Made by a program: the position numbers and the translations under genes | Part shown: positions 8,966 through 60,072 of the stretch, one piece after another | Position numbering within the stretch: the first letter of the stretch is position 1 | Layout of the letters: each line of letters begins with the position of its first letter | Origin: Bacteroidaceae bacterium | Lineage (GTDB): Bacteria; Bacteroidota; Bacteroidia; Bacteroidales; Bacteroidaceae | NCBI GenBank assembly: GCA_024398435.1 | Contig: JAKSJD010000009.1 | Location: 1 to 64,000, forward strand | DNA length: 64,000 nucleotides | Reading direction: 5' to 3' | The notes under the pieces: generated by a model | Database searches by the model: none | Told to the model about the DNA's origin: nothing | What the model saw: only the letters and a program-made list of their open reading frames with translations

Positions 8966-9050
8966 TACGATCATGGTCGTAAGGCCATACGATCATGTTC
9001 GTAAGGCCATACGATCGTGTTCGTATCGGAAAAACCTCTATAGAAATTTC
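8966..9050 (+). repeat. 22-bp tandem repeat array A1 with conserved tail
   Basis: Units start at 8966, 8988 and 9010, exactly 22 bp apart. Each has an imperfect palindrome (TACGATCATGGTCGTA) plus AGGCCA. A tail with CCTCTATAGAAATTTC follows (to 9050). The unit order and tail are nearly identical to array A2 at 44349. It lies in the 722-bp divergent gap 8591-9312, which otherwise holds the rplU promoter, the element at 8853 and the promoter at 9204. Confidence 0.9.
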
Positions 9051-9203
9051 TGCAACATCTCAAAAGAAGCGTTTGCCGAAGCTGTAAATAGAAGTCAACA
9101 TCATTTGTACTTTTATTATTGCATAATAAATATTTGATTGCAAGGTCAAATATCTCCAAATCACAATTATTTTAACTGTTTTTAACTTTTTTCTACAATA
9201 ATC

Positions 9204-9235
9204 TTTGATTATTCAAGAAAAATAACATATATTTG
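9204..9235 (+). promoter_or_regulatory. Promoter for giant surface-protein gene
   Basis: TTTG (9204-9207), 20 bp, TATATTTG (9228-9235): an exact Bacteroidetes-type promoter, giving a leader of about 70 nt before the ATG at 9313. Confidence 0.8.
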
Positions 9236-9312
9236 CAATCTAAATGCCAATCAGTACTAACAAAGAATTATTTAATAAACCTATTGTATAACAACTAAAA
9301 AATCAAAGCTAC

Positions 9313-12300
9313 ATGAGAAAAAGAAATGTAATTCTCGCTGTATTGTTTGCTTTGCTGACCGCAGGAGTTGCAAACGCTGCTCTGCCTAAGAAGGTTTCAG
9401 GTTGGTATGGCTACAATGCTGTTGCTACATCTACTGTCACCACTTCAGTGTGGTACGCTGCTCCCGAGAGCGACCCAGTGGATGTGACTGACAAAATCGT
9501 CAACCCTAACTTCAACAACGGAAAGGATGGTTGGGAAGGCAACTTCGGCAACGGAGCTGTTAAGGCAACTTCTGTCAACCCACTCATCACAAGTTTCGGT
9601 GGCGGTTTTGATGTTCATCAAACAATCACAGGCCTAACACCTGGTTGCTACACTCTCAAGGTTCAGGCATTCGCACGCGAAAAGTCAAATGCTGATATCA
9701 TCAATGCAGTTGCTGCAGGTACTGAGACTTACGACGTTCAGGCTTACATCTATGCTGGAAATGCAGAGGTGAAGGTTCTCCACATCGCTTACAACGGCAC
9801 AGATGGCATGCCAGACAGCTCTGGCGATGCTGCCAATGTGTTCAATGCAGGCAGCTACGACCAGTCACTCGACTTCGTAGTTGGTTCTAACGGTACTACC
9901 ACAATCGGTATCAAGAACCTCAGTTCAAACAGTGTTTCTTATGTTGGATACGATAACTTCCGTCTTTACTACACTGGTGAATTCGAAGGTGGAATCGAAG
10001 ACATTGCCGACCTTGGCGACCTTCCACTTCTCACTACAGACGAAAGCAACCCTATCCTCTATCGCATCAACAACACTCGCCGCACTGCTCAGGGCAAGGC
10101 AAACTGGTGGGACAGCTTCAACGGTATAACAACAAACAAGGACGATGCCGCTTTAGTTTACTTCACTGGTAAGTATGTTGGCGACAACTTGAAGGTTAAG
10201 ATTCACCTCAACGAAAGCACATACACTCTTGCAGGCGACTTCACTTGGGCTGTTGAAGGTATCGACTGGTACATCAAGGAGTTCACAAGCGCACAAGGTG
10301 GTCCTTACAAGGGAGTCATCATCAGTAACTCTCCAGACTTCCCTAATGCTTATGGCGATGTAACAAATGCCGATGGTACTGGATGCTGGTATGTTGGTTC
10401 AAGCAATGCTTCTCCATGGATGTATGGTGGTCAGTGGGATGGTTCCATCTTCACTTGCGAAATCAACGACCCTTCACAGATCGACTATGTTGCTGCTCTC
10501 ATTTCAAAGGTTCCAGAAGGCAAGATGAACGCAGATGTTCAGGCTGAACTTGACAATGCAATTGCTGCTCTTCAGGCTGATGCAACAGTGAAGAACTATG
10601 AAGCTCTTCAGGCATTAATCGCTGATGCAAAAGCAAGCATTGCTGCTTACGACCTCGTTAAGTCTACCCTCAATGGTGCTGACGCACTCAACGAAACCGC
10701 AAAGGCTATATTCAACGAAAAAGCTGCTGACATCATCGCTGCATACAACAACGGAACTCTCACTACTGACGTTGCTGATACAGTTGCTGCTATCAAGGCT
10801 GCAATCGCTGAAGCTGCAAAGGCTGGCATTCAGGAAGGAGACGACATTTCAAGCCTCATCATCAACGGCACATTCGATGTCAAGGGTGACGAAACTGGTT
10901 GGAAGGTTGAACGCTACGACGGCAACAACCCTGCCGACTTCAAGAATGGTGTTGTTACAGGTCGTGGATTCTACAGATTGACTCAGACAATCGAAGGTCT
11001 CCCTGCTGGTACATATACACTCTCTGCACAGGCATTCACTCGTCCAATGGACAACGGTCCTCTCGCAGAAGCTATTGCTGCTGGTCAAGACATCGTTAAC
11101 GAAGCATACATATTCGCTAATGGCGACTCAGTAAAGGTTCACCTCATCACAGATGTTCCTGAAGGTCATGCAGTTCCAAACGGAAGCGGCGAGGTTGCTA
11201 CTGCATTCGCAGACGGATGCTATCCTGTAAGCGTAACAGTTGAAGTAGGCGAAGACGGAGTTCTCACATTCGGTTTCGTAAACTGGAACAATGTATGGGA
11301 CAACTATGCTGGCGTTGACAACTTCACTCTCACATTCGACAAGGCTGCAGAACCAACTCCACAGCCAAACGTAGAAGGCAACCTCCTCAGCGAAGAATCA
11401 TACAACTTCGAAGGTGGTACAACAGGCAACTGGGCAATGACATACAACAACAACGGTGGCAATGCTACTGCTACAGTTGTAGAACCAGGCTATGAAGGCA
11501 GTGCATTCGCAATGCAGCTCAACAACACTGCAAAGGCAGACAACGCTTATAATGCGCAGCTCCCAATCAACCTCGGCGGCAACTTCGTTGGCAAGTATGA
11601 ACTCTCATTCTATGCTAAGGCTTCTGAAGAAGGTGCAGAAATCCAGTTCGGTGCTCAGCACACTCCATGGTCAGCCGACAATAAGGAATGGTTCGCTCCT
11701 GTTACAACCCTCACAACTGATTGGCAGAAGTACACTTACGAAGTTCTCCTCGGCGAAGACTTCGAAGCTCAGGGCGGTGTAAACACTCTCTACATCAACT
11801 TCGGTAATGTAGTCGGTACAGTTCAACTCGACCGTATCGCATTGGTTCCAGTTCCAGAACCAGAGCCAAATCCTTACGACTACACATTCGAAAGCTATGT
11901 AGGCAACTCATACGAGGAATATCAGGCTAATGTCGACATGGCAGGCATCCTTGCCGACCTCGGTGCTGAATCACTCAACGAAGTTAATATCTTCGCTGTT
12001 CTCGGTGACGGAACTCTCGACCCTAACTATCAGGTAGGTAACACAGACGGTTGGAGAAATGCCGACGGTATGTGGCAAAGCTGGGGTGCAGATGCACGCT
12101 ATTGCGTAAAGGCTGACTTCACACTCCCTGAAAATCAGATTTACTATGTAGGCGGTATGTACGAGCAGACTAAGGAACCAGCAACTTACACTGCAACATT
12201 CGCATTCGTAAAGAAGCCATACGTTCCAGCTCCAACACGTGAGGAAATCGCACAAGACCAGGGTACTCAGTACGACACATTCACCCGTGCAACAGTTGAA

Positions 12301-13386
12301 TACGGAGACGGATACACTGAGTACACAGTAACAGGAGACCTCCATGTAGCAATCAAGAACAAGGGCGAAGACGGCAACGGAATCGACGTAACTAATTGTG
12401 AAAAGGTTGTCATCGAATTCGCAGAACCAGTTCCAGCAGGTTGGAAGGTATCATACTCAGGCGTTCAGAGTCCTGATGCATGGCTCGATGTTCCAGAGGG
12501 TGCAACATCATACACAGTCCAGATTGCAGGTACTGAATATGCTGAAACAGGCATTCTTCCTGAATTCACTCTCATGGTAGGTTGGTCAGGCGCAACCAAA
12601 GAAAAGCCACTCTCATGCAAGGTTGTAGGCATCTACAAGTACTTCATTCCAGTTGGCGGAGGAGAAGAAGGCAATACCGACGGAATCACTCCTACACTTC
12701 CTGAAATCCCTGTAGTGACAAACGACGGAGAAGTAGAAGAAGAAGTATGCGATACAGTTTATGTAAATGTAACACTCAAGTATGTAGAGCGTCCAGACAT
12801 CACTCTCAATATCGTAGGTGAAGAAGATGCCAACTTCACAGTTGAAACATTTGCAAATGGCTACAACTTGCCATTCGAAGGCTCAATCGACCTTGCAGCA
12901 GGTCTTGAAGCAATCGGTTGCGATGCAAACAAGGCTGAAGCATATGCATACTACACCGACGAAGAAGGCAACCCTGTATTCGTAGCAGGTGCAATGGACA
13001 CTTACGATGGTTGGTTCTATCTCGACGGAACTCCAAAGACATGGGGTGACATCAATGCAAGCGAAGACGACAGAGGTATCTATGTCAAGTTCGACCCATC
13101 TGCAGCAAATGCCGTAACTGAAATCGGTACATTCCCATCAGTTACATGTGGTTACGACTCAACTTCTTACACAGTTCAGTGGGTTATCGCTAATCCAGAG
13201 ACAGGCAAGGCATATTGCTACAACATCACTGTAACAGGTGAGGCAGAGGCAGTTGCTATCAACAGTCTCAAGAACGCTAAGCAGGTTGACTGGAACAGTG
13301 CTTACGACCTCACAGGCCGCAAGGTAGCTACTCCAGTTAAGGGCAACATCTACATCGTAAACGGCAAGAAGGTTCTCTTCAAGTAA
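9313..13386 (+). CDS. Giant secreted multidomain surface protein with carbohydrate-binding-like modules (1357 aa)
   Basis: A signal peptide covers residues 1-22 (ending GVANA). Two related jelly-roll-like modules at about 60-220 and 510-680 share the pattern: INxxFD..GW, then GLPAGxYTLxxQAF, then YDNF. A third module at 695-850 resembles CBM4/9 (TLTTDWQKYTYEV). A helical FIVAR-like spacer lies at about 395-505. Two segments near 860-1000 and 1150-1310 resemble DUF4859. The last 45 residues (YDLTGRKV..IYIVNGKKVLFK) look like a type IX secretion sorting tail. No catalytic domain was recognised. Probably a glycan-binding or cell-surface protein. Its final module style is shared with the gene at 60163. 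Confidence 0.8.
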   Translation: MRKRNVILAVLFALLTAGVANAALPKKVSGWYGYNAVATSTVTTSVWYAAPESDPVDVTDKIVNPNFNNGKDGWEGNFGNGAVKATSVNPLITSFGGGFDVHQTITGLTPGCYTLKVQAFAREKSNADIINAVAAGTETYDVQAYIYAGNAEVKVLHIAYNGTDGMPDSSGDAANVFNAGSYDQSLDFVVGSNGTTTIGIKNLSSNSVSYVGYDNFRLYYTGEFEGGIEDIADLGDLPLLTTDESNPILYRINNTRRTAQGKANWWDSFNGITTNKDDAALVYFTGKYVGDNLKVKIHLNESTYTLAGDFTWAVEGIDWYIKEFTSAQGGPYKGVIISNSPDFPNAYGDVTNADGTGCWYVGSSNASPWMYGGQWDGSIFTCEINDPSQIDYVAALISKVPEGKMNADVQAELDNAIAALQADATVKNYEALQALIADAKASIAAYDLVKSTLNGADALNETAKAIFNEKAADIIAAYNNGTLTTDVADTVAAIKAAIAEAAKAGIQEGDDISSLIINGTFDVKGDETGWKVERYDGNNPADFKNGVVTGRGFYRLTQTIEGLPAGTYTLSAQAFTRPMDNGPLAEAIAAGQDIVNEAYIFANGDSVKVHLITDVPEGHAVPNGSGEVATAFADGCYPVSVTVEVGEDGVLTFGFVNWNNVWDNYAGVDNFTLTFDKAAEPTPQPNVEGNLLSEESYNFEGGTTGNWAMTYNNNGGNATATVVEPGYEGSAFAMQLNNTAKADNAYNAQLPINLGGNFVGKYELSFYAKASEEGAEIQFGAQHTPWSADNKEWFAPVTTLTTDWQKYTYEVLLGEDFEAQGGVNTLYINFGNVVGTVQLDRIALVPVPEPEPNPYDYTFESYVGNSYEEYQANVDMAGILADLGAESLNEVNIFAVLGDGTLDPNYQVGNTDGWRNADGMWQSWGADARYCVKADFTLPENQIYYVGGMYEQTKEPATYTATFAFVKKPYVPAPTREEIAQDQGTQYDTFTRATVEYGDGYTEYTVTGDLHVAIKNKGEDGNGIDVTNCEKVVIEFAEPVPAGWKVSYSGVQSPDAWLDVPEGATSYTVQIAGTEYAETGILPEFTLMVGWSGATKEKPLSCKVVGIYKYFIPVGGGEEGNTDGITPTLPEIPVVTNDGEVEEEVCDTVYVNVTLKYVERPDITLNIVGEEDANFTVETFANGYNLPFEGSIDLAAGLEAIGCDANKAEAYAYYTDEEGNPVFVAGAMDTYDGWFYLDGTPKTWGDINASEDDRGIYVKFDPSAANAVTEIGTFPSVTCGYDSTSYTVQWVIANPETGKAYCYNITVTGEAEAVAINSLKNAKQVDWNSAYDLTGRKVATPVKGNIYIVNGKKVLFK

Positions 13387-13412
13387 TACAGATTAGACCT
13401 ATCCTAATGATT

Positions 13413-13445
13413 GATGCCTGGGCAGCAATGCTCGGGCATCTTTTT
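13413..13445 (+). terminator. Rho-independent terminator after giant surface-protein gene
   Basis: GATGCC pairs with GGCATC, extended inside by GGGCA with TGCTC, and is followed by TTTTT (13441-13445). It lies 26 bp after the stop codon. Confidence 0.9.
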
Positions 13446-13470
13446 GTGTGTGGCTATGACATGACATCTA

Positions 13471-13500
13471 TGACATCGCCATATATATAGGCGATTGTCA
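13471..13500. repeat. Inverted repeat with ATATATATA loop
   Basis: TGACATCGCC (13471-13480) faces GGCGATTGTCA (13490-13500) across a nine-base A/T loop. The arms pair except for one extra T. TGACAT is repeated at 13457, 13462 and 13471. Confidence 0.75.
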
Positions 13501-13598
13501 AAGATGTCCAATGTCACTACATAAGCCTAAGCTTTGATGTCAATAAGTTAATCATTGCCAAAAACTTTCATTCTTTGCACTCGATTCTTTGCACCCCT

Positions 13599-13630
13599 GC
13601 ACTCTCATACATATATATATGAGAGAGTGC
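13599..13630. repeat. Second inverted repeat with alternating A/T loop
   Basis: GCACTCTCATA (13599-13609) pairs with TATGAGAGAGTGC (13618-13630), with a two-base bulge, around an alternating A/T loop. Outside the arms, TTTGCAC and GTGCATGCAAA extend the symmetry. Confidence 0.75.
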
Positions 13631-13734
13631 AAGAGTGCATGCAAATCTTATCGAGCCACTGAAATCACGATACTTTTTTGCACTATCAGTTGCTATGCGT
13701 AATATCGCCTTGATGGAAAATCGGGAAATGGACC

Positions 13735-13822
13735 GCGGTTCGAAGCCTCACGGAGCGCGGTGTTTTGACCTGTGAAGCTATGCTTCGTGATGCCATGAAG
13801 CGCGCTTCATTTTGACATGTCG
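13735..13822 (+). repeat. Degenerate 22-bp array B4
   Basis: GCGGTTCG at 13735 and GCGGTGTT at 13757 are 22 bp apart, as are GCTTC at 13782 and 13804. The segment also contains the perfect palindrome ATGAAGCGCGCTTCAT. The start matches family B elsewhere in the window, but the later units have drifted. Confidence 0.55.
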
Positions 13823-13843
13823 CAAGAATACTCGAATTGAGTT

Positions 13844-13954
13844 TTAGCTACTAAAACATTATAAAAAAATGACCTCAAGTCTTATATGGAACGTAGGTAT
13901 TTCTTATAAGAAAAGAGGTCTAACATTATAAGGAATGAAGACGCTTATTATAAG
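13844..13954 (-). repeat. 22-bp tandem repeat array C1 (five units)
   Basis: Read on the minus strand, TTATAA-type unit starts lie at 13954, 13932, 13910 and 13888, exactly 22 bp apart, with a fifth at 13865 (23 bp, a T-run indel). Units begin CTTATAAT or CTTATAAG and include GAGGTCATTT. The array ends 20 bp before the stop of the GH2 gene. The 588-bp convergent gap 13387-13974 holds the terminator, two A/T-loop inverted repeats, B4 and C1, but no gene. Confidence 0.88.
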
Positions 13955-13974
13955 TAATTACCGCGATCTCAACC

Positions 13975-19731: not shown

Positions 19732-19764
19732 TTTGGAGCGTATTATAAAAACTTACTATCTTTG
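19732..19764 (+). promoter_or_regulatory. Promoter for HU-like gene at 19919
   Basis: TTTG (19732-19735), 21 bp, TATCTTTG (19757-19764). Transcription should begin near 19771, leaving a leader of about 150 nt. Confidence 0.82.
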
Positions 19765-19766
19765 CA

Positions 19767-19836
19767 CTACACCTTTAGAAAAAAAGCTCTAGAAAATAAA
19801 AAAATTATATCTAGAGAAAAAATAAAAAAGGTGTAG
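19767..19836 (+). promoter_or_regulatory. Nested hairpin at the 5' end of the HU mRNA
   Basis: CTACACCTTT (19767-19776) pairs with AAAGGTGTAG (19827-19836), and inside it CTCTAGA (19787-19793) pairs with TCTAGAG (19810-19816). The unpaired parts are almost all A. The outer arm begins at or next to the expected transcription start. Confidence 0.7.
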
Positions 19837-19918
19837 ATGAAAATAAAATAAAAGTGTAGAAGAAAAAGAATGAAGATGTACAAGCAATTGCAAGTTCTTC
19901 GTTCAAAGTCAGGAAATA

Positions 19919-23578: not shown

Positions 23579-23622
23579 CATTTTATATAAAAACAGAATG
23601 GATAGTTACAATGAAAAACATC

Positions 23623-23710
23623 GCGGTTCTCGGCTCAATTATTAGCGGTTCATGAGGTCATTTCCCGCGGTTCGTGACCCAATTATTAGCGGTTCGTGAG
23701 GTCATTTCTA
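23623..23710 (+). repeat. 22-bp tandem repeat array B1 (four units)
   Basis: GCGGTTC begins at 23623, 23645, 23667 and 23689, exactly 22 bp apart. Units 1 and 3 end in CAATTATTA; units 2 and 4 contain GAGGTCATTTC, so two unit types alternate. It lies in the 304-bp convergent gap between the DUF4270 gene and glgP. Confidence 0.93.
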
Positions 23711-28067: not shown

Positions 28068-28070
28068 AAA

Positions 28071-31538: not shown

Positions 31539-33359
31539 ATGAGTGATTTCCTTTTATATGCAATCAAGTCGGCATTCGTACTTTCGATACTTTATGTGCC
31601 TTACATGCTGATGCTGAGAAACGAGAAGTTCTTCCGTTTCAACCGAATGACTATCATCAGTATTCTGTTACTTTCCGTCTTGTTGCCTCTTTGCAACCTT
31701 CCTTTCCTTTCGCTCGACCAGCAACCAGTGGTACAGGCAGCTCAGCAACAAATTATAGAGATTGGCATTCCCATCAAGACGAATTATGTGGTTGTAGCGA
31801 CCGAAAAGTCGCATTCCATCTCATGGTTCCAAGTTGTGAGCATCATCTATTTGATAGGAATGGCAGTTGTTTTGCTTATTCGTTCCATCCAGTTCTGCCG
31901 AATGGGAATGGTGATTCGAGGTGGAACATTGTGGAAGGAGAAGCAGGATGGAATCAACATTTATTGTCATGCTGATGAAGTTGCGCCTTTCAGTTGGCTC
32001 AACAACATTGTGATTGGCAAGAACGATTATGACAGTAATGGCCATGAAATCATACTTCATGAGAAGGGGCACATCCTATGCCGCCACTCGCTCGACATAA
32101 TTTTCCTCACACTCGTCCAGATGCTCCAATGGTGGAATCCGTTGGTTTACATCCTTGGCATGAGCCTTCGGGATGTCCACGAATATGAAGCAGATGATTA
32201 TGTACTTCGTGAAGGTGTAAGCCTCAATGGCTATCAAAAGATACTAATAACAAAGGCAATCGAATCAAGTAGCTACACTTTTGCCAACAATTTCAACCAT
32301 AGTTTAATCAAAAAAAGAATTTTCATGATGAGCAAGAAGAATTCAAATCCATGGCGAAGAAGTAAAGCTTTGTACTTCATCCCAATGGTGGCAATTGCCT
32401 TGAGTGCGTTCGCCACTCCAAAGTTTATCGCTCCCATCGAAGAGGCAGTGGAAAACCTCAACGATAATCCTGTAATGGTAGAACCCGTAGATACCTGCAA
32501 TGCCGAAATCAATCCTGATGACTACACTATCCTTATAGACGGAAAAATGTCAACATCTGAAGAATTGAAGAATCTCGACAAATCCATGATTGCCCATGCC
32601 ACCATCATCGACGATGTAGATAAAGTAAAGCAGCAGTTTGGCAATCAAATGACGAAACCTGCCATTGTCATTCAAACTATGACAGAGAAGGATGATAATG
32701 TGGCAAAGGGAAAGGCCAAATATGTTCGGGTAATGAAAGACGAACACAATCGAATCATCGGTTTCAAGCCTACGAATGAAAGCATTGGCAATCCTGTTGC
32801 CGGTCAAATCAATGAGGTTCCAGTCGATCATGTATACATTTTCAATGGCACCGAAGGCGGAAATGTCTATGATGTCACACTCGACCAATGCCGACAAGCC
32901 ACAGAAGATGAAGTTGCCAATATAGAGAAACTGCATTACAATCAGTATTTACTGACTACCAGTCCTGATGGTTCTGCTAAGTTCAACAATAAGGACAAGG
33001 GAGGCCTCTTGATTCTAAGCATAATATCCGAATCAGAACTTAAAGCCAAGCTAGAAGAATCTGCAAGTGCTTCTCCATCCATTATTGAAGTCAAACAAGA
33101 TAATGGTGTGAATAGCAAGAGCATCAAAATCGAAATCAAGGAGAATGGCGACGTTCTCTTCGGTGAAGATGGAAAGAAAATGAGAGTGGTTTCGGATGAG
33201 GAACTAAAGCAGGAAATTCGCAACTTGAGCAACACTACATTGCAAGCAAAGGTAACTACCGATATGAATGCAGCACAGGAACAGCTTGATACAGTGAGGG
33301 ACATCTTTAGAATTGCAGAAAAAGTCCAAGTGACATACAAAATGGAAAAAGAGAAATAG
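31539..33359 (+). CDS. M56 (BlaR1/MecR1-like) membrane metallopeptidase, 606 aa
   Basis: N-terminal hydrophobic segments lie at about 5-25, 37-55 and 90-110. The zinc site is HEKGH (residue about 177) with a following EADDYVLREG glutamate, and another membrane span lies near 285-305. The 300-residue C-terminal part is outside the membrane and has no penicillin-binding motifs, unlike BlaR1. It has the usual Bacteroidetes layout with a repressor partner. The signal sensed is unknown. Confidence 0.88.
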   Translation: MSDFLLYAIKSAFVLSILYVPYMLMLRNEKFFRFNRMTIISILLLSVLLPLCNLPFLSLDQQPVVQAAQQQIIEIGIPIKTNYVVVATEKSHSISWFQVVSIIYLIGMAVVLLIRSIQFCRMGMVIRGGTLWKEKQDGINIYCHADEVAPFSWLNNIVIGKNDYDSNGHEIILHEKGHILCRHSLDIIFLTLVQMLQWWNPLVYILGMSLRDVHEYEADDYVLREGVSLNGYQKILITKAIESSSYTFANNFNHSLIKKRIFMMSKKNSNPWRRSKALYFIPMVAIALSAFATPKFIAPIEEAVENLNDNPVMVEPVDTCNAEINPDDYTILIDGKMSTSEELKNLDKSMIAHATIIDDVDKVKQQFGNQMTKPAIVIQTMTEKDDNVAKGKAKYVRVMKDEHNRIIGFKPTNESIGNPVAGQINEVPVDHVYIFNGTEGGNVYDVTLDQCRQATEDEVANIEKLHYNQYLLTTSPDGSAKFNNKDKGGLLILSIISESELKAKLEESASASPSIIEVKQDNGVNSKSIKIEIKENGDVLFGEDGKKMRVVSDEELKQEIRNLSNTTLQAKVTTDMNAAQEQLDTVRDIFRIAEKVQVTYKMEKEK

Positions 33360-33482: not shown

Positions 33483-33671
33483 CTTTTCCTCGAATCACAA
33501 TACTCTGAAAAATCATTCCTCCACTTTTACTTATGCCTTCTCGCCTTTCACTTTCGTTTCGGGACCTTTCTATTTAATCCCATTCAAGCTTCCAAAGCAC
33601 TCCACTTATATTTCCTCAAACATTTTCTTTCATTTCCACAAGCATTTTCCGACATTTTCCCTAACATTTCC
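33483..33671. other. Gene-free pyrimidine-rich stretch
   Basis: About 190 bp whose plus strand is mostly C and T, with repeated CATTTTC-like words near the right end. No gene, promoter or hairpin was recognised. It separates the M56 terminator from the promoter at 33672. Confidence 0.6.
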
Positions 33672-33702
33672 TTTGTCAATCAAAAATAAAGTACTATCTT
33701 TG
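33672..33702 (+). promoter_or_regulatory. Promoter for HU-like gene at 33890
   Basis: TTTG (33672-33675), 19 bp, TATCTTTG (33695-33702). Transcription should begin near 33709, directly before array D. Confidence 0.82.
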
Positions 33703-33718
33703 CAGCGAAAAAGTTAGA

Positions 33719-33805
33719 GTCATAAGTTATGACTTCAACGTCATAAGGTTATGTCTCACAAATCATAATGTTACGACTTCAGAGTCATAAGTTATGACTT
33801 GCAAA
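33719..33805 (-). repeat. 22-bp tandem repeat array D inside an mRNA leader (four units)
   Basis: Unit starts on the plus strand are 33719, 33740, 33762 and 33784 (spacing 21, 22, 22). Units carry the palindrome GTCATAAGTTATGAC or variants. On the minus strand they read TGAAGTCAT then AACTTATGACTC, close to family C. It lies between the promoter and the HU-like gene, so it is transcribed, and each unit can form a small hairpin. Confidence 0.9.
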
Positions 33806-44220: not shown

Positions 44221-44330
44221 ATTATAAGGTTTGACCTCATTTCTTATTAGAAGTGAGGTCATTTCTTATAAGACTCACGCCTATTTCTTATAATGTTTCG
44301 GATGTTTTCTTATAATGTTTTCTAGAAAGC
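44221..44330 (+). repeat. 22-bp tandem repeat array C2 (five units)
   Basis: Unit starts are 44221, 44243, 44265, 44287 and 44309, exactly 22 bp apart. Units start ATTATAAG, CTTATTAG or CTTATAA and share the same frame as C1 13-14 kb from the left edge. Unit 2 contains GTGAGGTCATTT, the same 12 bases found in family B. Confidence 0.93.
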
Positions 44331-44348
44331 ATATTGCTTCGCAAATCA

Positions 44349-44432
44349 TACGATCATGGTCGTAAGGCCATACGATCATGTTCGTAAGGCGATACGATCG
44401 TGATCGTATCGATAAAACTCCTATAGAAATTT
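44349..44432 (+). repeat. 22-bp tandem repeat array A2 with conserved tail
   Basis: Units start at 44349, 44371 and 44393. The third contains ATACGATC-GT-GATCGTAT, two 8-base perfect arms. The tail CTCCTATAGAAATTT nearly repeats that of A1. With C2 it fills the 285-bp convergent gap between the MFS gene and the GH26 gene. Confidence 0.92.
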
Positions 44433-50025: not shown

Positions 50026-50565
50026 TTAAGCCTCTGCAGGAGCTTCTTCTGTAGCTGGTTCTTCAGCTGGAGCTTCTTCTGCTGCAGGTTCAGCAGCTGC
50101 GAGAGCAGCAGCCTTCTTTTCTGCAACCTTCTGAGCGATAGCATCGTTGACTTTCTTTTCAGCAGCAAGGCGAGCTTCGTAAGCAGCCTTCTTTGCTGAA
50201 GCCTTCTTAGCCTCGAGAGCAGTGAGCTTGTTATCCTTCTCTGCCTTCCAAGCATCAAACTTAGCCTGAGCAGCAGCTTCGTCGAAAGCGCCCTTCTTAA
50301 CACCACCGAGGAGGTGCTTCATCATGTAAACGCCTTCCTTTGAAAGGATATTGCGAACTGTGTCTGTAGGCTGAGCACCTACTTGTACCCAATAAAGAGC
50401 ACGTTCGAAGTTCAAATCAATTGTTGAAGGATTGGTGTTAGGGTTGTAAGTACCAATCTTTTCTACGAAGCGACCATCACGTGGTGCATCGGCATGTGCG
50501 ATAACGATTGAGAAGAATGCATAGTTCTTTCTACCGTGACGCTGTAATCTAATTTTAACTGCCAT
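50026..50565 (-). CDS. rpsP: 30S ribosomal protein S16 with long Ala/Glu/Lys tail
   Basis: A 179-aa protein. Residues 1-85 are S16 ([20 protein letters not shown], then [12 protein letters not shown] and [15 protein letters not shown]). The remaining 90 residues form a predicted helix rich in Ala and Lys followed by an Ala/Glu/Pro end ([18 protein letters not shown]). E. coli S16 is 82 aa, so the protein is more than doubled. The tail resembles that of the HU protein at 1-517 in composition. It is monocistronic, with its own promoter and terminator. Confidence 0.95.
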
Positions 50566-50763: not shown

Positions 50764-50851
50764 AAAAAATTACCTCTCGAACCGCAAACAATTGGCCTTC
50801 GAACCGCGAACAATTGGCCTTCGAACCGCGAATAATTGACCTTCGAACCGC
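50764..50851 (-). repeat. 22-bp tandem repeat array B2 (four units)
   Basis: On the minus strand GCGGTTCG units begin at 50851, 50829, 50807 and 50785, exactly 22 bp apart. Three units carry AAGGYCAATTRTT; the last ends in AGGTAATTTTTT. It lies in the 337-bp gap 50566-50902, upstream of rpsP and downstream of the GH43-GH8 gene; the gap holds no gene. Confidence 0.93.
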
Positions 50852-50860
50852 GATGTTTTT

Positions 50861-53413: not shown

Positions 53414-53462
53414 TTTAATTCTTTGATTTGATTATTTTGACTGTTAATATTTATTTCGATTG

Positions 53463-53781: not shown

Positions 53782-53789
53782 TATCTTTG
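53782..53789 (+). promoter_or_regulatory. Promoter -7 box for the Rnf operon
   Basis: TATCTTTG followed by CACTG, 34 bp before the first ATG. No good TTTG lies at the expected distance. Confidence 0.65.
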
Positions 53790-53822
53790 CACTGACTTTA
53801 CACTATACCCAACGGATTCATA

Positions 53823-54239
53823 ATGGCAGAGAAGATTGAACACAGAGGCATCGTCGAACGGATTGAGGGCAATCTGGTCAGTGTACGCATCTCTCAATCC
53901 ACCGCTTGCAGCGGCTGCCAAGCCCGTCATCTCTGCAACAGCAGCGAAAGTCAGGAGAAAATCGTCTCGGCTCAAACCACTGAAACAGACTTGAAAATAG
54001 GCGAAGAAGTGAATGTCATTGCCGCCGAATCGATGGGAAAGAAAGCTGTTGCTCTGGCATTCGTCGTACCACTCGTTATTCTGGTTTTACTGACGTTTGC
54101 GGCAGTTCTTCTATTGCGTTGGAGCGAAGGTATGGCCATAGTGACTGCATTGGTGGTGGTAGCCGCATATTACGGAGTGCTTGCCATCAACAGGAAAAAG
54201 CTGAATAAGGAGTTCAACTTCTGGGTGGAACGACTTTAA
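53823..54239 (+). CDS. RseC/MucC-family protein, first gene of the Rnf operon
   Basis: A 138-aa protein. The N-terminal half has four cysteines (STACSGCQARHLC, plus Cys in the first loop region) that could bind metal. Two membrane helices lie at about 78-98 and 102-122. RseC-type proteins are often encoded with rnf genes and help reduce SoxR or mature the Rnf complex. It lies 65 bp ahead of rnfB. Confidence 0.88.
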   Translation: MAEKIEHRGIVERIEGNLVSVRISQSTACSGCQARHLCNSSESQEKIVSAQTTETDLKIGEEVNVIAAESMGKKAVALAFVVPLVILVLLTFAAVLLLRWSEGMAIVTALVVVAAYYGVLAINRKKLNKEFNFWVERL

Positions 54240-54304
54240 AAGGGAACGCCCAAATGAGGATGGAAAAAGAAAGAACGTGTTAAAATTTAATAAATAAAAA
54301 TGTT

Positions 54305-55426
54305 ATGGTAAATGTAATTCTTATCGCTGTACTTGTTCTTGGTGCCGTAGGACTTATATCAGCATTGATATTGTTCTTCGTGGCTAAGAAATTTGCAGTA
54401 AAGGAAGATCCACGCATTGCACAGGTTTCTGAGGTTTTGCCTCAAGCCAACTGTGGCGGTTGCGGTTTCCCAGGATGCTCCGGAATGGCAGCTGCTTGTG
54501 TGAAAGCTGCTGATAAAGGTTCGCTCGAAGGACTCAGCTGCCCTGTTGGAGGACAGGAATGCATGGACAAGGTAGCAGCCATCCTTGGAATGGAAGCTGC
54601 AAAAACCGCTCCAAAGATTGCAGTCGTTCGTTGCAACGGCTCATGCGAGAATCGCCCTAAAGTGGTTCATTACGATGGTGTGAAGAGTTGCCGAGTTGCC
54701 AATGCTACAAGCAGAGGCGAAACTCTCTGCCAGTATGGTTGCCTCGGTTGCGGCGATTGCGTCAGTGCTTGTCAGTTCGGAGCAATCAAGATGAATGAGG
54801 AAACTGGTCTTCCAGAAGTGGACGCAACAAAATGTACTGCTTGTGGAGCTTGTGCAAAGGCTTGTCCTCGCGCCATCATCGAGATTCGCCAAGTAGACGA
54901 AGCAAAGACAGGAATGGTGGTTGAGTGCGTCAACAAGGACAAGGGTGCCGTTGCACAGAAAGCATGTGCAGTGGCTTGTATCGGTTGCGGCAAGTGTGTT
55001 CAGGTTTGTGGTTCGGAAGCAATCACACTCGAAAACAACCTCGCCTACATCGATGCAGCGAAGTGTACGATGTGTCGCTCTTGCGAAGAAGCTTGTCCAA
55101 AGGGAAGCATCCTTGCAATCGGTCTTGAACCTCATCCAAACAAGGCAAAACCAAAAGCAAAGAAGGAAGCAGCTCCAGCTACTCAAGCAGCTGCCGCTCA
55201 AGGCGAGACAAAGGCAGTGAAGAACACCAACACCCGCCCTTATGCAGAGCCAATCGAAGTGAAATTCGACGCTCCATTGCTCCCTTCACAGCAATACATG
55301 CTTGCAGGAACAGTCGACCTCGTTGCTGCCGAGCAGAAACAATCAGAACAGACAGAGCAGGCAGAACATTCATACGATGCTCCGCTCCTGCCTTCACAGC
55401 AAATATTATTGGGCATTAAAAAGTAG
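54305..55426 (+). CDS. rnfB: Rnf complex subunit B with extended tail
   Basis: A 373-aa iron-sulfur protein. An N-terminal membrane helix (3-25) is followed by the NCGGCGFPGC cluster near residue 57. Four ferredoxin-type CxxCxxCxxxC motifs come next (CLGCGDCVSAC, CTACGACAKAC, CIGCGKCVQVC, CTMCRSCEEAC). The last 90 residues are a low-complexity tail containing DAPLLPSQQ twice (322-330 and 358-366). RnfB takes electrons from ferredoxin. It is longer than usual because of the tail. Confidence 0.95.
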   Translation: MVNVILIAVLVLGAVGLISALILFFVAKKFAVKEDPRIAQVSEVLPQANCGGCGFPGCSGMAAACVKAADKGSLEGLSCPVGGQECMDKVAAILGMEAAKTAPKIAVVRCNGSCENRPKVVHYDGVKSCRVANATSRGETLCQYGCLGCGDCVSACQFGAIKMNEETGLPEVDATKCTACGACAKACPRAIIEIRQVDEAKTGMVVECVNKDKGAVAQKACAVACIGCGKCVQVCGSEAITLENNLAYIDAAKCTMCRSCEEACPKGSILAIGLEPHPNKAKPKAKKEAAPATQAAAAQGETKAVKNTNTRPYAEPIEVKFDAPLLPSQQYMLAGTVDLVAAEQKQSEQTEQAEHSYDAPLLPSQQILLGIKK

Positions 55427-55432
55427 AAGAGC

Positions 55433-56776
55433 ATGAAGACATTTAAGATAGGCGGAGTACATCCAGCAGAAAATAAATTGTCAGCAGCACAGCCAATAAA
55501 GGTTGCTGAACTTCCAAAGATTGCAGTTTTCCCAATGGGACAGCACATCGGTGCTCCTGCCAAGCCAATCGTTCAGAAGGGCGATAAGGTGAAGGTAGGT
55601 CAGAAGATAGCTGAGGCAGGCGGATTCGTCAGTGCCCCTATCCACTCTTCCGTATCGGGAACAGTACTTAAAGTAGATACAATAGTAGAGGCAAGCGGCT
55701 ATGCAAAGCCAGCAGTTTACATAACAGTCGAAGGCGACGAATGGGAAGAAGGCATTGACCGTTCCGACACTCTCGTCACACTCAACGACCGTCCTGAACT
55801 CACAGACAAGGACATAATCAGCAAGATTCAGAATGCAGGTGTCGTAGGAATGGGTGGAGCATGTTTCCCTTGCCACGTAAAGCTCATGCCTCCTTCAGGC
55901 AGCAAACCTGAATGGGTTATCATCAATGCAGTGGAATGCGAACCTTACCTCACTGCCGACCATCGCCTGATGCTCGAACATGCTGACGAAATCCTCGTGG
56001 GAGTCACTCTTCTCATGAAGGCAGTCAACGTGAACAAGGGCTTCATTGCCATTGAAAAGAACAAGCCAGATGCAATTGCTCTCCTTACAGAGAAGGCAAA
56101 GGCTTATCCTGAGATTGAGGTTGTTCCACTCAACGTGAAATATCCACAAGGTGGCGAAAAGCAACTTATCGATGCAGTGGTTGGCCGTCAGGTGCCAGCT
56201 CCTCCTGCACTTCCAGTAAGCGTTGGTGCTATTATTCAGAATGTAGGTACTGCATTTGCCGTTTATCAGGCAGTAATGAAGAACAAGCCTCTCTTTGAGC
56301 GCATCATCACTGTCACGGGCAAGAGCCTTGCCAACCCAAGCAACTTCCTTGCAAGAATGGGTACTCCAATGGCTCAGCTCATCGATGCTTGCGGCGGACT
56401 TCCAGAAGACACTGGCAAGGTTATCGGTGGCGGACCTATGATGGGAAAGGCATTGCTCAATACTGACGTTCCTGTATGCAAGGGTTCGTCGGGCATTCTC
56501 ATAATGAACGAAAAGGAATCACTTCGAGGCGAGGTACAGAACTGTATCCGATGCGCAAAGTGTGTGGGTGCCTGCCCTATGGGCCTCGAACCTTATCTCC
56601 TCAGTGCATGTGCCGAACAGCAAATGTGGGATAAGCTCGAGAAGGAAGACATCACATCATGCATCGAATGTGGCTGTTGCCAGTTCACATGTCCTTCCAA
56701 CCGTCCTCTGCTCGACCTCGTTCGCATGGGTAAGTCGACCGTAATGGGAATCATCAAAAGCAGAAACGCTAAATAA
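55433..56776 (+). CDS. rnfC: Rnf complex subunit C
   Basis: A 447-aa peripheral subunit. It has an N-terminal barrel-sandwich region, the FMN/NADH-binding fold with GMGGACFPCHVKL near residue 140 and NAVECEPYLTADHRLM, and two 4Fe-4S motifs near the end (CIRCAKCVGACP, CIECGCCQFTCP). It passes electrons to NAD. It begins 6 bp after rnfB. Confidence 0.96.
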   Translation: MKTFKIGGVHPAENKLSAAQPIKVAELPKIAVFPMGQHIGAPAKPIVQKGDKVKVGQKIAEAGGFVSAPIHSSVSGTVLKVDTIVEASGYAKPAVYITVEGDEWEEGIDRSDTLVTLNDRPELTDKDIISKIQNAGVVGMGGACFPCHVKLMPPSGSKPEWVIINAVECEPYLTADHRLMLEHADEILVGVTLLMKAVNVNKGFIAIEKNKPDAIALLTEKAKAYPEIEVVPLNVKYPQGGEKQLIDAVVGRQVPAPPALPVSVGAIIQNVGTAFAVYQAVMKNKPLFERIITVTGKSLANPSNFLARMGTPMAQLIDACGGLPEDTGKVIGGGPMMGKALLNTDVPVCKGSSGILIMNEKESLRGEVQNCIRCAKCVGACPMGLEPYLLSACAEQQMWDKLEKEDITSCIECGCCQFTCPSNRPLLDLVRMGKSTVMGIIKSRNAK

Positions 56777-56798
56777 GTAATCGTTAAGAACAAGAAAC

Positions 56799-57785
56799 AT
56801 GAAACAATTAACAATATCACTTTCACCACATGTCCATGCAAACGACTCGGTGAAGAAGAACATGTACGGTGTGTGCATTGCACTCATCCCTGCCCTTCTT
56901 TGCTCTTTCGTATTCTTCGGCATTGGTGCGATTGCGGTAACTGCTGTATCAGTTGCCTCTTGCGTATTCTTTGAGTGGGCAATCAACAAATACCTTCTGA
57001 AGAACGATAAGCCAACCGTTACCGACGGTTCGGCTATCCTCACTGGTATTCTCCTTGCATTCAACCTCCCATCAAATCTTCCTCTTTGGATTGTAATCAT
57101 CGGAGCCTTGTTTGCTATTGGAGTTGTTAAGATGACATTCGGCGGACTTGGTTGCAATCTCTTCAACCCTGCCCTTGCCGGCCGTGCATTCCTGCTCATC
57201 TCCTTCCCTGTTCAGATGACCACATGGCCAGAACCTCTTCAGGGATTCATGACACTCGACGGCACTACAGGAGCCACTCCTCTTTCAATTATGAAGGCTG
57301 CCATCAAGGGAAATGATGCAAGTTTGCTCAATAACCTTCCTGACGGCATACACATGTTGACAGGACAGACAGGCGGTTGCCTTGGCGAAGTTTGTGCTCT
57401 CGCCATTCTCATCGGCCTTGTCTACCTTCTCGTTAAGAAGATTATCACATGGCACATTCCTGTAGCCATTCTTGCTACAGTATTTGTATTCTCAGGTCTT
57501 ATGCACCTTGCCAACCCTATCTATGCCGACCCAGTGGCAGAACTCCTCAGTGGTGGACTTCTTCTCGGTGCGGTGTTCATGGCAACAGATTATGTCACTT
57601 CTCCAATGACGAAGAAGGGTCAGTTGATTTATGGTGTGGCAATCGGTTTCCTCACAGTGGTTATCCGTACATGGGGAGCTTATCCAGAAGGAATGTCGTT
57701 CGCAATCCTCATCATGAATGCATTCACACCTCTTATTAATAACTATTGTAAACCAAAGCGATTCGGGGAGGTAGTCAAGAAATGA
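56799..57785 (+). CDS. rnfD: Rnf complex subunit D
   Basis: A 328-aa integral membrane subunit with about nine helices. The covalent FMN site is in DGTTGATPLSIM near residue 155, with LGCNLFNPALAGRAFLL upstream. It forms part of the ion-pumping core. Its last codons overlap rnfG by 4 bp. Confidence 0.95.
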   Translation: MKQLTISLSPHVHANDSVKKNMYGVCIALIPALLCSFVFFGIGAIAVTAVSVASCVFFEWAINKYLLKNDKPTVTDGSAILTGILLAFNLPSNLPLWIVIIGALFAIGVVKMTFGGLGCNLFNPALAGRAFLLISFPVQMTTWPEPLQGFMTLDGTTGATPLSIMKAAIKGNDASLLNNLPDGIHMLTGQTGGCLGEVCALAILIGLVYLLVKKIITWHIPVAILATVFVFSGLMHLANPIYADPVAELLSGGLLLGAVFMATDYVTSPMTKKGQLIYGVAIGFLTVVIRTWGAYPEGMSFAILIMNAFTPLINNYCKPKRFGEVVKK

Positions 57786-58369
57786 AAAAGCTAAAGTCAT
57801 CATTATTGAACATGGTGTTGGTGCTCACACTCATCACCATCATAGCTGGAGCTGCACTTGCTGCCGTCAACGACGTTACTTCAGTGCAGATTGAGAAAAT
57901 CAATGCCGAGAATCTTGCTAAGGGAATCAAGCAAGTGATGGGCGTAGATGCCAACTCAAACTTTGAATATACCGAAGACGAAGTCGAAGGTTTCACATTC
58001 TATAAGTCGGAACTCGGAACAGCCGTAAAGACTACATCCAATGGTTTCGGTGGTCCTCTCGAAGTGCTTGTAGGTTTCGACAACGAAGGCACAATCATGG
58101 GTTATACAATCCTTTCACATTCTGAAACTCCAGGACTCGGAGCAAAGGCTCAGGAATGGTTCCAGAAGGGCCAGAAGGGCGACATTGTCGGAAAGAACCC
58201 AGGTCAGTGTAACTTCACAGTAAGCAAGGACGGCGGCGATGTTGATGCTATCACTGCATCTACAATCACATCACGCGCATTCCTTCTTGCCGTACAGAAC
58301 GCTTACGATAAAGTCTATAACAATCAAGACGGCACAACAAGTGCTACACAGAAAGGAGGCCAGCAATGA
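57782..58369 (+). CDS. rnfG: Rnf complex subunit G
   Basis: A 195-aa protein with one N-terminal membrane helix (9-29) and a periplasmic FMN domain. GYTILSHSETPGLGAKA is conserved, and ITASTITSRAF carries the Thr that binds FMN covalently. The last 20 residues are Gln/Thr/Gly-rich. Overlaps rnfD and rnfE by 4 bp each. Confidence 0.95.
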   Translation: MKKLKSSLLNMVLVLTLITIIAGAALAAVNDVTSVQIEKINAENLAKGIKQVMGVDANSNFEYTEDEVEGFTFYKSELGTAVKTTSNGFGGPLEVLVGFDNEGTIMGYTILSHSETPGLGAKAQEWFQKGQKGDIVGKNPGQCNFTVSKDGGDVDAITASTITSRAFLLAVQNAYDKVYNNQDGTTSATQKGGQQ

Positions 58370-58950
58370 ATAATTTCAAGGTTTTAATCAACGGAATCGT
58401 TAAGGAGAACCCTACATTCGTACTCCTTCTCGGTATGTGCCCTACTCTCGGTACAACTTCAAGCGCAATCAACGGAATGTCGATGGGATTGGCCACTACC
58501 TTCGTGCTCATCCTCTCCAATTTCCTCATCTCTGCCATCAAAAATCTCATTCCTGATGCAGTGCGCATTCCTTCCTACATCGTTGTGATTGCATCATTGG
58601 TGACAATCCTTCAGATGGTGATGCAGGCCTATGTGCCAACTATCTATGCAACTCTCGGATTGTTCATTCCGCTCATTGTGGTCAACTGTATCATCCTCGG
58701 CCGAGCTGAGGCATTTGCAGCAAAGAACGGCCCTATCGCCAGCATCTTCGACGGAATCGGTATCGGTATTGGTTTCACCCTCGCACTCACACTCCTCGGA
58801 GCCGTTCGTGAGTTCCTCGGCACTGGAGCCATCTTCGGATTCTCTCTCCAAGGCGAACAATACGGAATGCTCATGTTCGTTCTCGCACCAGGTGCATTCA
58901 TCGTACTTGGCTATCTTATCGCAATCGTTAACAAAATAAGAAAGGCTTGA
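58366..58950 (+). CDS. rnfE: Rnf complex subunit E
   Basis: A 194-aa membrane subunit with six helices, homologous to RnfA. The family motifs are NPTFVLLLGMCPTLGTTSSAINGMSMG in parts at the N-terminus and VNCIILGRAEAFA near residue 105, each with a cysteine that binds the shared membrane 2Fe-2S cluster. It overlaps rnfG by 4 bp. Confidence 0.95.
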   Translation: MNNFKVLINGIVKENPTFVLLLGMCPTLGTTSSAINGMSMGLATTFVLILSNFLISAIKNLIPDAVRIPSYIVVIASLVTILQMVMQAYVPTIYATLGLFIPLIVVNCIILGRAEAFAAKNGPIASIFDGIGIGIGFTLALTLLGAVREFLGTGAIFGFSLQGEQYGMLMFVLAPGAFIVLGYLIAIVNKIRKA

Positions 58951-58952
58951 TT

Positions 58953-59555
58953 ATGGAATATGTATTGATATTTATCACCGCTATATTTGTCAACAATATA
59001 GTTCTTTCACAGTTCCTCGGCATCTGTCCGTTCCTCGGAGTGTCGAAGAAAATCAGCACAGCATCCGGAATGGGAGCTGCCGTTACATTCGTGCTTACAC
59101 TTGCCACTATCGTAACATACGGCATTCAGAAACTCGTGCTCGACCCTAACGGACTTGGCTACCTCCAGACGATTGCATTCATCCTCGTCATCGCTGCCCT
59201 CGTGCAGATGGTGGAAATCATTCTCAAGAAGGTGTCTCCATCTCTCTATCAGGCTCTCGGAGTGTTCCTCCCTCTCATCACCACCAACTGCTGCATCCTC
59301 GGTGTGGCAATCCTCGTGATTCAGAAGGACTACTCATTGCTTCAGGGCATCGTATTCGCCATCTCAACAGCTCTCGGCTTTGCCCTTGCAATGATTATCT
59401 TTGCAGGCCTCCGCGAGCAACTTCAGTTCTCACGCGTACCAAAGGCAGTACAGGGAATGCCTATAGCTCTCATCACAGCAGGACTCCTTGCAATGGCTTT
59501 CATGGGCTTCAGCGGAGTGGACGGAGGTCTCAAGGTTTTGTTCGGATTGGAATAA
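58953..59555 (+). CDS. rnfA: Rnf complex subunit A
   Basis: A 200-aa membrane subunit with six helices. It has IFVNNIVLSQFLGICPFLGVS at the start in parts and TTNCCILGVAIL near 110, the inverted partner of RnfE. A TTG at 58947 is in frame, but ATG at 58953 gives the usual MEYVLIF start. Last gene of the operon; terminator 60 bp on. Confidence 0.95.
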   Translation: MEYVLIFITAIFVNNIVLSQFLGICPFLGVSKKISTASGMGAAVTFVLTLATIVTYGIQKLVLDPNGLGYLQTIAFILVIAALVQMVEIILKKVSPSLYQALGVFLPLITTNCCILGVAILVIQKDYSLLQGIVFAISTALGFALAMIIFAGLREQLQFSRVPKAVQGMPIALITAGLLAMAFMGFSGVDGGLKVLFGLE

Positions 59556-59615
59556 TCACAATCGTTTAGCTAAAACAAGTTCTGACACACACTGAACTCT
59601 CTCATACACAAACGA

Positions 59616-59648
59616 GGGGACAATCACACGATGGTTGTTCCCTTTTTT
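59616..59648 (+). terminator. Rho-independent terminator after the Rnf operon
   Basis: GGGGACAA (59616-59623) pairs with TTGTTCCC (59635-59642), one G-T pair, followed by TTTTTT. Confidence 0.88.
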
Positions 59649-59655
59649 ATTGTCA

Positions 59656-59991
59656 AAGCGTTGCGCGTTGCAGCGTTGCAGTCGATTTTGTCATGTATGC
59701 AGTTCTTTCTTTTCCTAAGATTTTCCAGGATTCTTATTATTAATTATAATTATAATATTAATAATATATAATAATATAATATAATATATACACTATATCT
59801 ATACTACTATACTATTACTATATTATTATTACTTATTATTACTATACTATATTCTTATATACTATATATATAAAATATAATAATATATAAATATAATATA
59901 TATAATATATTGATATATAGATAGTTAGGTGAGAAAGTGGAAAAATGCAGGTATTACAAAAACAGCTGCAACGCTGCAACGCGCAACGCTT
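59656..59991. repeat. 26-bp perfect inverted repeat around a 284-bp A/T-rich loop
   Basis: The left arm (59656-59681) starts AAGCGTTGCG; the right arm (59966-59991) is its exact reverse complement. Each arm contains three GCGTTGC words. Between them, 59731-59933 is almost only A and T, with many TATAAT and ATATA words. No ORF of note lies inside. It begins 8 bp after the Rnf terminator. Both arms are G/C-rich against an A/T loop, like the smaller repeats at 13471 and 13599. Confidence 0.93.
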
Positions 59992-60006
59992 GTGGGATAA
60001 TTTCTC

Positions 60007-60072
60007 GCGGTTCATGAGGTCATTTCTCGCGGTTCGGGAGGTGATTTCTTGCGGTTCGGAGAGTCATTGTCA
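60007..60072 (+). repeat. 22-bp tandem repeat array B3 (three units)
   Basis: GCGGTTC begins at 60007, 60029 and 60051, exactly 22 bp apart, with GAGGTCATTTC, GAGGTGATTTC and GAGAGTCATTG. It lies 15 bp right of the inverted repeat. The 607-bp convergent gap 59556-60162 holds the terminators, the inverted repeat and B3, but no gene. Confidence 0.92.

What the first reader, a model, noticed from the sequence alone, without database searches (positions are those of the whole stretch)
8966..60072. Nine intergenic arrays with a common 22-bp period and a shared half-unit
Arrays A1 (8966), B4 (13735), C1 (13844), B1 (23623), D (33719), C2 (44221), A2 (44349), B2 (50764) and B3 (60007) all repeat every 22 bp (once 21, once 23). 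When aligned, each unit is a nine-base core TRARGYCAT plus a 13-base part specific to the family: ACGATCATGTTCG (A), TTCCCGCGGTTCG (B), TTCTTATAAGACT (C), and the 12-base AACTTATGACTC (D, minus strand). A and B share GTTCGTRAGGYCAT; B and C share GTGAGGTCATTT; C and D share GTCATWWCTTATRA. So the four families look like one superfamily built from a fixed and a changing half. I know no described element of this form. About two helical turns per unit would suit a repeated protein-binding site. The function is unknown.
Basis: seen in the sequence. Interest (0 to 1): 0.88.

Follow-up and report, generated by a model that had tools for sequence, protein, structure and literature searches.

The report
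Intergenic repeat arrays, 22-bp grid
Between the genes of this bacterium lie many small blocks of repeated DNA with quite different sequences but the same 22-base spacing, and sampled relatives carry blocks of that spacing with yet other sequences, which may point to an unknown two-helical-turn machinery rather than a shared sequence.

Summary
Partly confirmed and widened. Eight of the nine arrays have a clear 22-bp period; B4 is weak. The period is real: 22 lag-22 arrays in 46.8 kb of sampled intergenic DNA, 0 in 410 kb of coding DNA. The four named families are a fraction of what is there; by eye at least six more repeat every 21-22 bp. B and C are mosaics of one another and D may be akin to C; A is not related to C or D in sequence. 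What unites them is spacing. Unrelated motifs often share one register: 202 of 215 CCWWGG dyads in a horse-faeces Bacteroidaceae MAG, 11 of 15 motif pairs here, and C2 with A2. Same-family genomes carry 22-bp arrays of other sequences (18 of 357 junctions) against 0 of 234 in other families of the order. The E element has a conserved 78-bp core with flanks that decay to noise while keeping register. Against: palindrome-spacing peaks were not seen in the family sample. Best reading, moderate confidence: dispersed, locally homogenised elements whose pitch is set by a protein or complex with a two-turn footprint. Function is inferred, not shown.

The parts
8944..9048 (.). A1 element: three 16-bp palindromes TACGATCRTGNTCGTA at 22-bp spacing (8966-9025), with CTATTG (8948-8953) and CTATAG (9038-9043) centred 23 bp outside the first and last
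   Evidence: in 10 aligned A copies a CTATWG dyad lies exactly 23 bp downstream in 8 and upstream in 5
13735..13800 (+). B4: degenerate stretch with CGCGGTTCG and GAAGCGC motifs; weak 22-bp periodicity
   Evidence: 16/30 at lag 22
13844..13967 (-). C1: C-type units TTTCTTATAA...; 22-bp register
19764..19880 (.). additional AT-rich stretch (CTAGA...) with 22-23 bp period, not in the finding
23622..23708 (+). B1: four B-type units, 22 bp, alternate units more alike (44 bp)
33596..33675 (+). additional 22-bp periodic stretch (ATTTCC..CAAACATTTTC), not in the finding
33718..33805 (.). D: four units of the palindrome AGTCATAASTTATGACT, period 22 with small indels
   Evidence: fold z -6.3 / -5.0
44221..44320 (+). 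C2: C-type units, dyads at 44247, 44269, 44291, 44313
44347..44426 (+). A2: three A palindromes (44349-44408) plus CTATAG at 44421-44426; in the same 22-bp register as C2 (CTATAG one base off)
50764..50853 (-). B2: about four B-type units, 22 bp
60000..60072 (+). B3: three B-type units TTTCTCGCGGTTCRTGAGGTCA

Best explanation
These are dispersed, non-coding intergenic elements made of short units held on a 22-bp grid, many units centred on a short palindrome. I think the grid is imposed by a DNA-binding protein or complex that occupies two helical turns per step, neighbouring sites lying on the same face of the helix. Sequence is free to diverge and is locally homogenised by gain and loss of whole units and by exchange between copies, while spacing is kept. 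In the best resolved element (E) a conserved core would be the nucleating site and the flanks a zone of weaker, spreading contact. Shown: the period, intergenic position, shared register of unrelated motifs in many cases, spread of the period in the family samples, core-to-flank decay without loss of register, one case of a one-unit length change between sister species. Inferred: the protein, spreading, exchange between copies, any benefit to the cell, and how copies disperse.
For: Lag-22 arrays 22 intergenic vs 0 coding; 21 junctions at lag 22 vs 0-7 at other lags 15-33. Palindrome centre spacing in own intergenic DNA peaks at 11, 22, 33, 44 (19, 19, 9, 4) and in the horse MAG (10, 16, 10, 4); other-phylum loci give 0 and 2 at 11 and 22. 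CCWWGG vs TTTCTNNNNAGAAA dyads within 220 bp: 202 of 215 within one base of the 22-bp register, nearest on each side 27 of 27; at 600-3000 bp 7 of 146. Own genome within one base mod 11: CTATAG-TGTACA 16/17, CTATAG-A 12/12, CTATAG-CGCG 25/27, A-TTATAA 15/15. C2/A2 on one grid. Same family 18/357 junctions vs other families 0/234, Fisher p=1.1e-4. E: core 93% mean pairwise identity; outward 22-bp blocks fall 75, 69, 52, 35% and 63, 63, 46, 33% to about 27%, best offset 0 in 16-19 of 19 copies through the third block each side, 11 and 8 of 19 in the fourth. Orthologous array in G086/G120 differs by 22 bp in all, neighbouring genes 94-96% identical. Flank models built from E also score on three H elements and on one G element.
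Against: No binding protein found. Between dissimilar palindromes (at most 9 of 14 bases alike) the 22-bp peak falls from 19 to 3 here and from 16 to 0 in the horse MAG, while 11 and 33 remain. Palindrome-spacing peaks are faint in the genus sample (1, 2, 1, 3 at 11, 22, 33, 44) and not seen in 20 family stretches (0, 1, 2, 0). 4 of 15 motif pairs are at or below chance register (TTATAA-CGCG 44/145, TTATAA-GAAGCGC 7/27, CGCG-CTATTG 6/20, TGTACA-TTATAA 1/9), and pairs within one array are not independent. Register could be inherited by duplication then divergence. Unit palindromy beats shuffles (p<=0.05) in only 14 of 60 arrays; in A the two variable pairs match less often than expected (9 vs 13.3 and 19 vs 22.2 of 34). 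B pattern and E core are absent from all 16 genus mates, so no single sequence is long constrained. Other phyla also gave 2 of 82 junctions at lag 22 and 5 at lag 21.
Confidence: 0.37

Rival explanations
1. Selfish interspersed repeats (MITE-like or of unknown mobility) with no cellular role; the 22-bp grid is inherited from repeat-built ancestors and kept by unit-wise slippage and gene conversion.
For: Species-specific sequences: 28 distinct E places, 12 A and 13 G places in one genome (overlapping matches merged by me) and no E in 16 genus mates. CTATWG dyads beside three-unit A arrays. Whole-unit length change in one orthologous array. No lag-22 array in coding DNA.
Against: Does not by itself explain why sequence families that look unrelated, in one genome and across a taxonomic family, share 22 bp, nor kept register at about 50% identity. 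In eight aligned E copies I saw by eye no sharp ends and no clear target duplication.
Confidence: 0.35
2. RNA-level hairpins: bidirectional terminators or 3'-end stabilisers made of tandem palindromes.
For: One example each of A, C2/A2, D, G and H folds better than shuffles on both strands (z -2.1 to -10); 44 B/C arrays have A5 on the left in 17 and T5 on the right in 20 (both in 10) against 0.11 and 0.07 background.
Against: Over 24 arrays the median z is -1.6 (46% below -2) vs -1.4 (33%) for 88 control stretches; of nine B or B/C stretches folded three pass -2 on one strand (L008, L047, B3) and none on both; E gives -1.5 and -1.3. Arrays are as common between divergent genes (9/31) as convergent ones (8/27). 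By eye both genes around B1 have hairpin-like stretches outside the array.
Confidence: 0.1
3. Phased curvature or supercoil-related sites: A/T-tracts and dyads placed at about 11 bp to bend DNA or attract gyrase or bridging nucleoid proteins.
For: 11-bp harmonics of palindrome spacing; T- and A-runs at regular steps in E flanks, read by eye; published link of 10-11 bp A-tract periodicity with nucleoid structure (PMC3940949, passages).
Against: GC-rich arrays (CGCG, GTGCGCACTC, CCTTGG) keep the same pitch; outside arrays the lag-22 signal falls from z 5.8 to 2.0, though lag 21 stays at 3.4. Curvature was not computed.
Confidence: 0.1
4. REP/BIME-type palindromes mobilised by a RAYT (Y1) transposase.
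For: Short palindromes in clusters between genes.
Against: No PF01797 match in the host genome (78% complete assembly); 28 of 61 genomes searched lack one.
Confidence: 0.03

Closest known systems
[quoted passage not shown]
   Same: Intergenic, many copies (177 and 184), confined to a small species group, no terminal inverted repeats, probably no coding capacity, function unknown; length close to 8.5 units of 22 bp
   Different: Its consensus is only in a figure, so a 22-bp period could not be tested; described as one repeat of one group, not as a spacing shared by unrelated sequences
BrickBuilt, 23-nt minisatellite within a MITE of Porphyromonas gingivalis (PMC4596501: abstract, section 5, part 1 of section 7 and passages seen)
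   Same: Tandem units of about two helical turns without spacers, intergenic, 19 loci, lineage-specific
   Different: 23 nt, one sequence family, 1 to 22.8 copies, leader and tail with IS5-type terminal inverted repeats; another bacterial family (recalled)
REP/BIME palindromes (PMC3733652, passages seen)
   Same: Short intergenic palindromes, clustered
   Different: No Y1 transposase match in this genome; fixed 22-bp pitch; the GTAG/CGTC tag was not sought
22-bp transposase sites of Mu and Tn7 ends (recalled, no call)
   Same: Same site length, several sites in a row
   Different: Those ends belong to one large transposon with its own transposase; no such transposon was sought here

Membership tests
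BrickBuilt-type minisatellite MITE | about 23-nt tandem units without spacers, intergenic | tested here: inconclusive
   22 bp, intergenic; length differs by one
BrickBuilt-type minisatellite MITE | leader and tail with IS5-like terminal inverted repeats GAGACC... | not tested
   the published ends were not searched for; A has CTATWG dyads beside it, E has no sharp ends, B/C often end in A/T runs
PINSR | 188-bp consensus, no TIR, intergenic, high copy | not testable with these tools
   consensus letters are not in the text held
REP/RAYT | cognate Y1 transposase (PF01797) in the genome | tested here: not met
   0 matches in G000, a 78% complete assembly
REP/RAYT | GTAG or CGTC tag next to hairpin | not tested
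   not scanned
Intrinsic bidirectional terminator | stable stem followed by T run | tested here: inconclusive
   T5 in 20 of 44 B/C arrays; of nine B or B/C stretches folded three have z below -2 on one strand, none on both
Intrinsic bidirectional terminator | placed at gene 3' ends | tested here: not met
   divergent 9/31 vs convergent 8/27 junctions
CRISPR array | near-identical repeats separated by unique spacers | tested here: not met
   contiguous 22-bp units without spacers; 2-6 internal units in 44 B/C arrays
MITE | terminal inverted repeats, target duplication, matching transposase ends | tested here: inconclusive
   CTATWG beside A copies; no clear target duplication in 8 aligned E copies, by eye; transposase ends not sought
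Known structured RNA (Rfam 15) | match to a family at gathering score | tested here: not met
   window and eight loci searched: only TPP, tRNA and Bacteroidales-1, away from the arrays

The most novel reading that the evidence does not exclude
A repeat class defined by pitch, not sequence: across one bacterial family an unknown machinery with a two-turn (22-bp) step writes or occupies grid-locked elements between genes, a bacterial counterpart of satellite DNA whose monomer length is fixed by a chromatin-like complex while its sequence turns over with every species.
Probability: 0.3. Interest if true: 0.93.

Novelty: new variant of a known kind. Interest (0 to 1): 0.73.

Why it matters
Bacterial interspersed repeats are catalogued by sequence. 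If spacing is the conserved trait, sequence-based annotation misses a whole class, and the conserved 22-bp step points to a protein that could be fished out with array DNA. It would tie intergenic repeats to chromosome structure in a large family of gut bacteria and give a test of why repeat monomer length can outlive repeat sequence.

Tried and rejected
Terminator, REP/RAYT and CRISPR readings were tested (see rivals and membership). Plasmid or phage origin: no match of C2/A2 in plasmids, no exact C-type pattern in viral contigs. Empty-site search at B1: 14 of 16 genus mates have the neighbouring phosphorylase gene, but the downstream sequence is not shared, so no empty site could be read. 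Compensatory changes in A palindromes were sought and not found. In TTTC-framed units palindromic cores were in excess, 51 of 206 vs 17.7 expected, at most 30 in 2000 shuffles, but these follow family membership. That all convergent junctions carry arrays (4 of 4 in the window) was dropped after the wider sample gave 8 of 27.

Limits: genes are simple ORF calls of 90 aa or more. Arrays are called at 26 or 27 matches in 40 bases (25). Families E to J and motif lists for the register test were chosen by eye. The 24 other-phylum and 21 horse loci were picked by an AT-rich 22-bp pattern. L247 was dropped from the E block analysis (20 to 19). 6 of 16 A loci were dropped (two at contig ends, four reverse hits of the same places). 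The shuffles keep base composition only; there three segments without E, H or G also score above the shuffled maximum (1.9 is H again; 2.1 and 5.5 are not). PINSR's period could not be tested.

Print: (searches of openly licensed PMC papers) listed no paper whose title or abstract start describes a shared 22-bp pitch in this group. Papers opened: PMC4596501, PMC3733652, PMC4755523, PMC3940949, in the parts named.

Full report
CHECK OF THE OBSERVATION. The window is part of contig C32 of an unnamed draft genome G000 (2.3 Mb, 78% complete). Eight of nine arrays repeat clearly at 22 bp; B4 is weak. At 27 of 40 matches, 9 lag-22 stretches occur in the window's intergenic DNA and 13 in that of 400 kb of further stretches chosen without regard to arrays, against none in 410 kb of coding DNA; summed over both, other lags from 15 to 33 give 0 to 7. 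In 168 junctions of at least 60 bp the count is 21 for lag 22, 7 for lag 21, and 0 to 4 for the other lags from 15 to 33; some lag-21 cases are simple repeats by eye.

FAMILIES. B and C share modules. Genome hits show units of the form TTTCT, a tetramer such as CGCG, TATA or TGCT, an arm such as GTTCG, AAACTC or ATGTTT, and an inner part such as GAGGTCA or GACCCTA, combined in many ways. The B pattern with up to 3 mismatches has 26 places and 0 in the reversed control; the general frame has 141 against 11. A is unrelated to C and D in sequence; C and D are weakly alike. By eye I separate further families with 21-22 bp period: E (GTACATAATTA), F (CTATAGGAA), G (GTACCAAACCCTAAGTACGATT), H (GCGACGTAATTTAGGTAAACA), I (GAAGCGCG) and J (CATCGCGTTCCATGAGGTAAAA). 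E has 28 distinct places, A 12 and G 13 in the genome.

REGISTER. In own intergenic DNA imperfect palindromes are 11, 22, 33 or 44 bp apart 19, 19, 9 and 4 times; 8, 9 and 10 bp have 8 to 10, the remaining distances 0 to 5; coding DNA has at most 3 anywhere. The horse MAG shows 10, 16, 10 and 4 (plus 5 at 45); loci of other phyla 0, 2, 3 and 6. Between dissimilar palindromes the 22 peak drops to 3 and 0, leaving 11 and 33. The genus sample is too thin (1, 2, 1, 3) and 20 family stretches show no such peaks (0, 1, 2, 0), so dyad spacing is not shown to be general. A fully palindromic unit with an even period gives the 11-bp dyad automatically, so 11 and 22 are not independent. The stronger test uses different motifs. 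In the horse-faeces MAG (JAKSLJ01, found) 21 loci have two to four TTTCTNNNNAGAAA units (four in 14) and, where I laid out six of them, runs of other units on both sides in step with them. 202 of 215 CCWWGG dyads within 220 bp are in register within one base, 27 of 27 nearest ones, against 7 of 146 at 600-3000 bp. In the own genome 11 of 15 motif pairs with enough data have 0.59 to 1.00 of pairs within one base mod 11 (chance 0.27), and 4 have 0.11 to 0.30. In the window C2 and A2 share one grid, with TTCTAGAA between them at the half step and CTATAG one base off. Common descent of units could also keep register, so this is strong but not final evidence of a spacing constraint.

ELEMENT ANATOMY. 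The ten A copies aligned have three palindromes (one reads on into a fourth), with a CTATWG dyad 23 bp downstream in 8 and upstream in 5. E elements have a 78-bp core at 93% mean pairwise identity; identity falls step by step on both sides over about four units to background, while the best alignment offset is 0 in 16-19 of 19 copies through the third block and in 11 and 8 of 19 in the fourth. Flank models built from E score above the shuffled maximum on all three H elements of the sample (one or both sides) and clearly on one of three G elements: like flanks, different cores. B/C arrays often end in outward A and T runs (17 and 20 of 44).

SPREAD. None of 16 same-genus genomes has the B pattern or the E core, yet lag-22 arrays of other sequences occur in the genus (6 of 96 junctions) and in other genera of the family (12 of 261), together 18 of 357, against 0 of 234 in 40 stretches from other families of the order (Fisher p=1.1e-4) and 2 of 82 in other phyla, which also have 5 at lag 21. 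A best lag of 21-23 was seen in 5 of 16 genus, 12 of 40 family, 0 of 40 other-family and 4 of 24 other-phylum samples. Examples are AGTGCGCACTCGCGGGGCCG and GGTCCCATACTGGGACT in the genus and CTCACGAGCGTACACC in a family member picked for its hits. In two sister species with about 94% identical shared DNA one orthologous array differs by 22 bp in all.

MECHANISM. A shared pitch in unrelated sequences, often in register between families, asks for something that counts 22 bp. I favour a DNA-binding protein or complex with a two-turn footprint. RNA hairpins would suit A, C2/A2, D, G and H (z -2.1 to -10, one example each), but B arrays mostly do not fold better than shuffles, E does not pass -2, and over 24 arrays the median z hardly differs from control (-1.6 vs -1.4). 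Terminators are not favoured: divergent junctions carry arrays as often as convergent ones, and by eye both genes next to B1 have hairpins of their own. No Y1 transposase was found in the 78% complete genome. Selfish dispersal is compatible with much of the data and is the main rival; the two may both hold.

KNOWN. PINSR (PMC4755523) and BrickBuilt (PMC4596501) are the nearest described elements that I found; each is one sequence family. The parts of those papers that I saw do not describe a pitch shared by unrelated sequences. I call the finding a new variant of known intergenic repeats, with a bolder reading kept in the novel case.

Noticed in passing
window 7792-7898 (-): TPP riboswitch above Rfam gathering score
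   Followed up: no
window 59738-59923: 186-bp TA-rich microsatellite-like tract between an rnfA-type gene and array B3
   Followed up: no
G000 C1:232485, C2:82943, C4:60383 (L127, L129): TTTCTTGCTAGAAATAGGCCTCTTTCTTGCTA occurs on three contigs, the C2 copy within 1 kb of a contig end; may be part of a longer dispersed repeat
   Followed up: no
JAKSLJ01 loci such as L066:4606-4890, L096:1806-2090: Horse-faeces MAG elements of about 12-14 units with central TTATAA-type units between CCWWGG-type units on one 22-bp grid
   Followed up: partly
window 10-237 and 50039-50100: Repeats with periods divisible by three (15, 21, 30, 111 bp); the second lies in an ORF, coding status of the first not checked
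   Followed up: no
window 31539-33359 (+): 606-aa protein with weak BlaR1-type sensor similarity, ending before array D
   Followed up: no
L170:6560, L171:7578-7675 and L171:19447-19540: In sister species G086/G120 some arrays lie in segments that do not align with the other genome's stretch, so arrays may also come and go with larger rearrangements
   Followed up: partly
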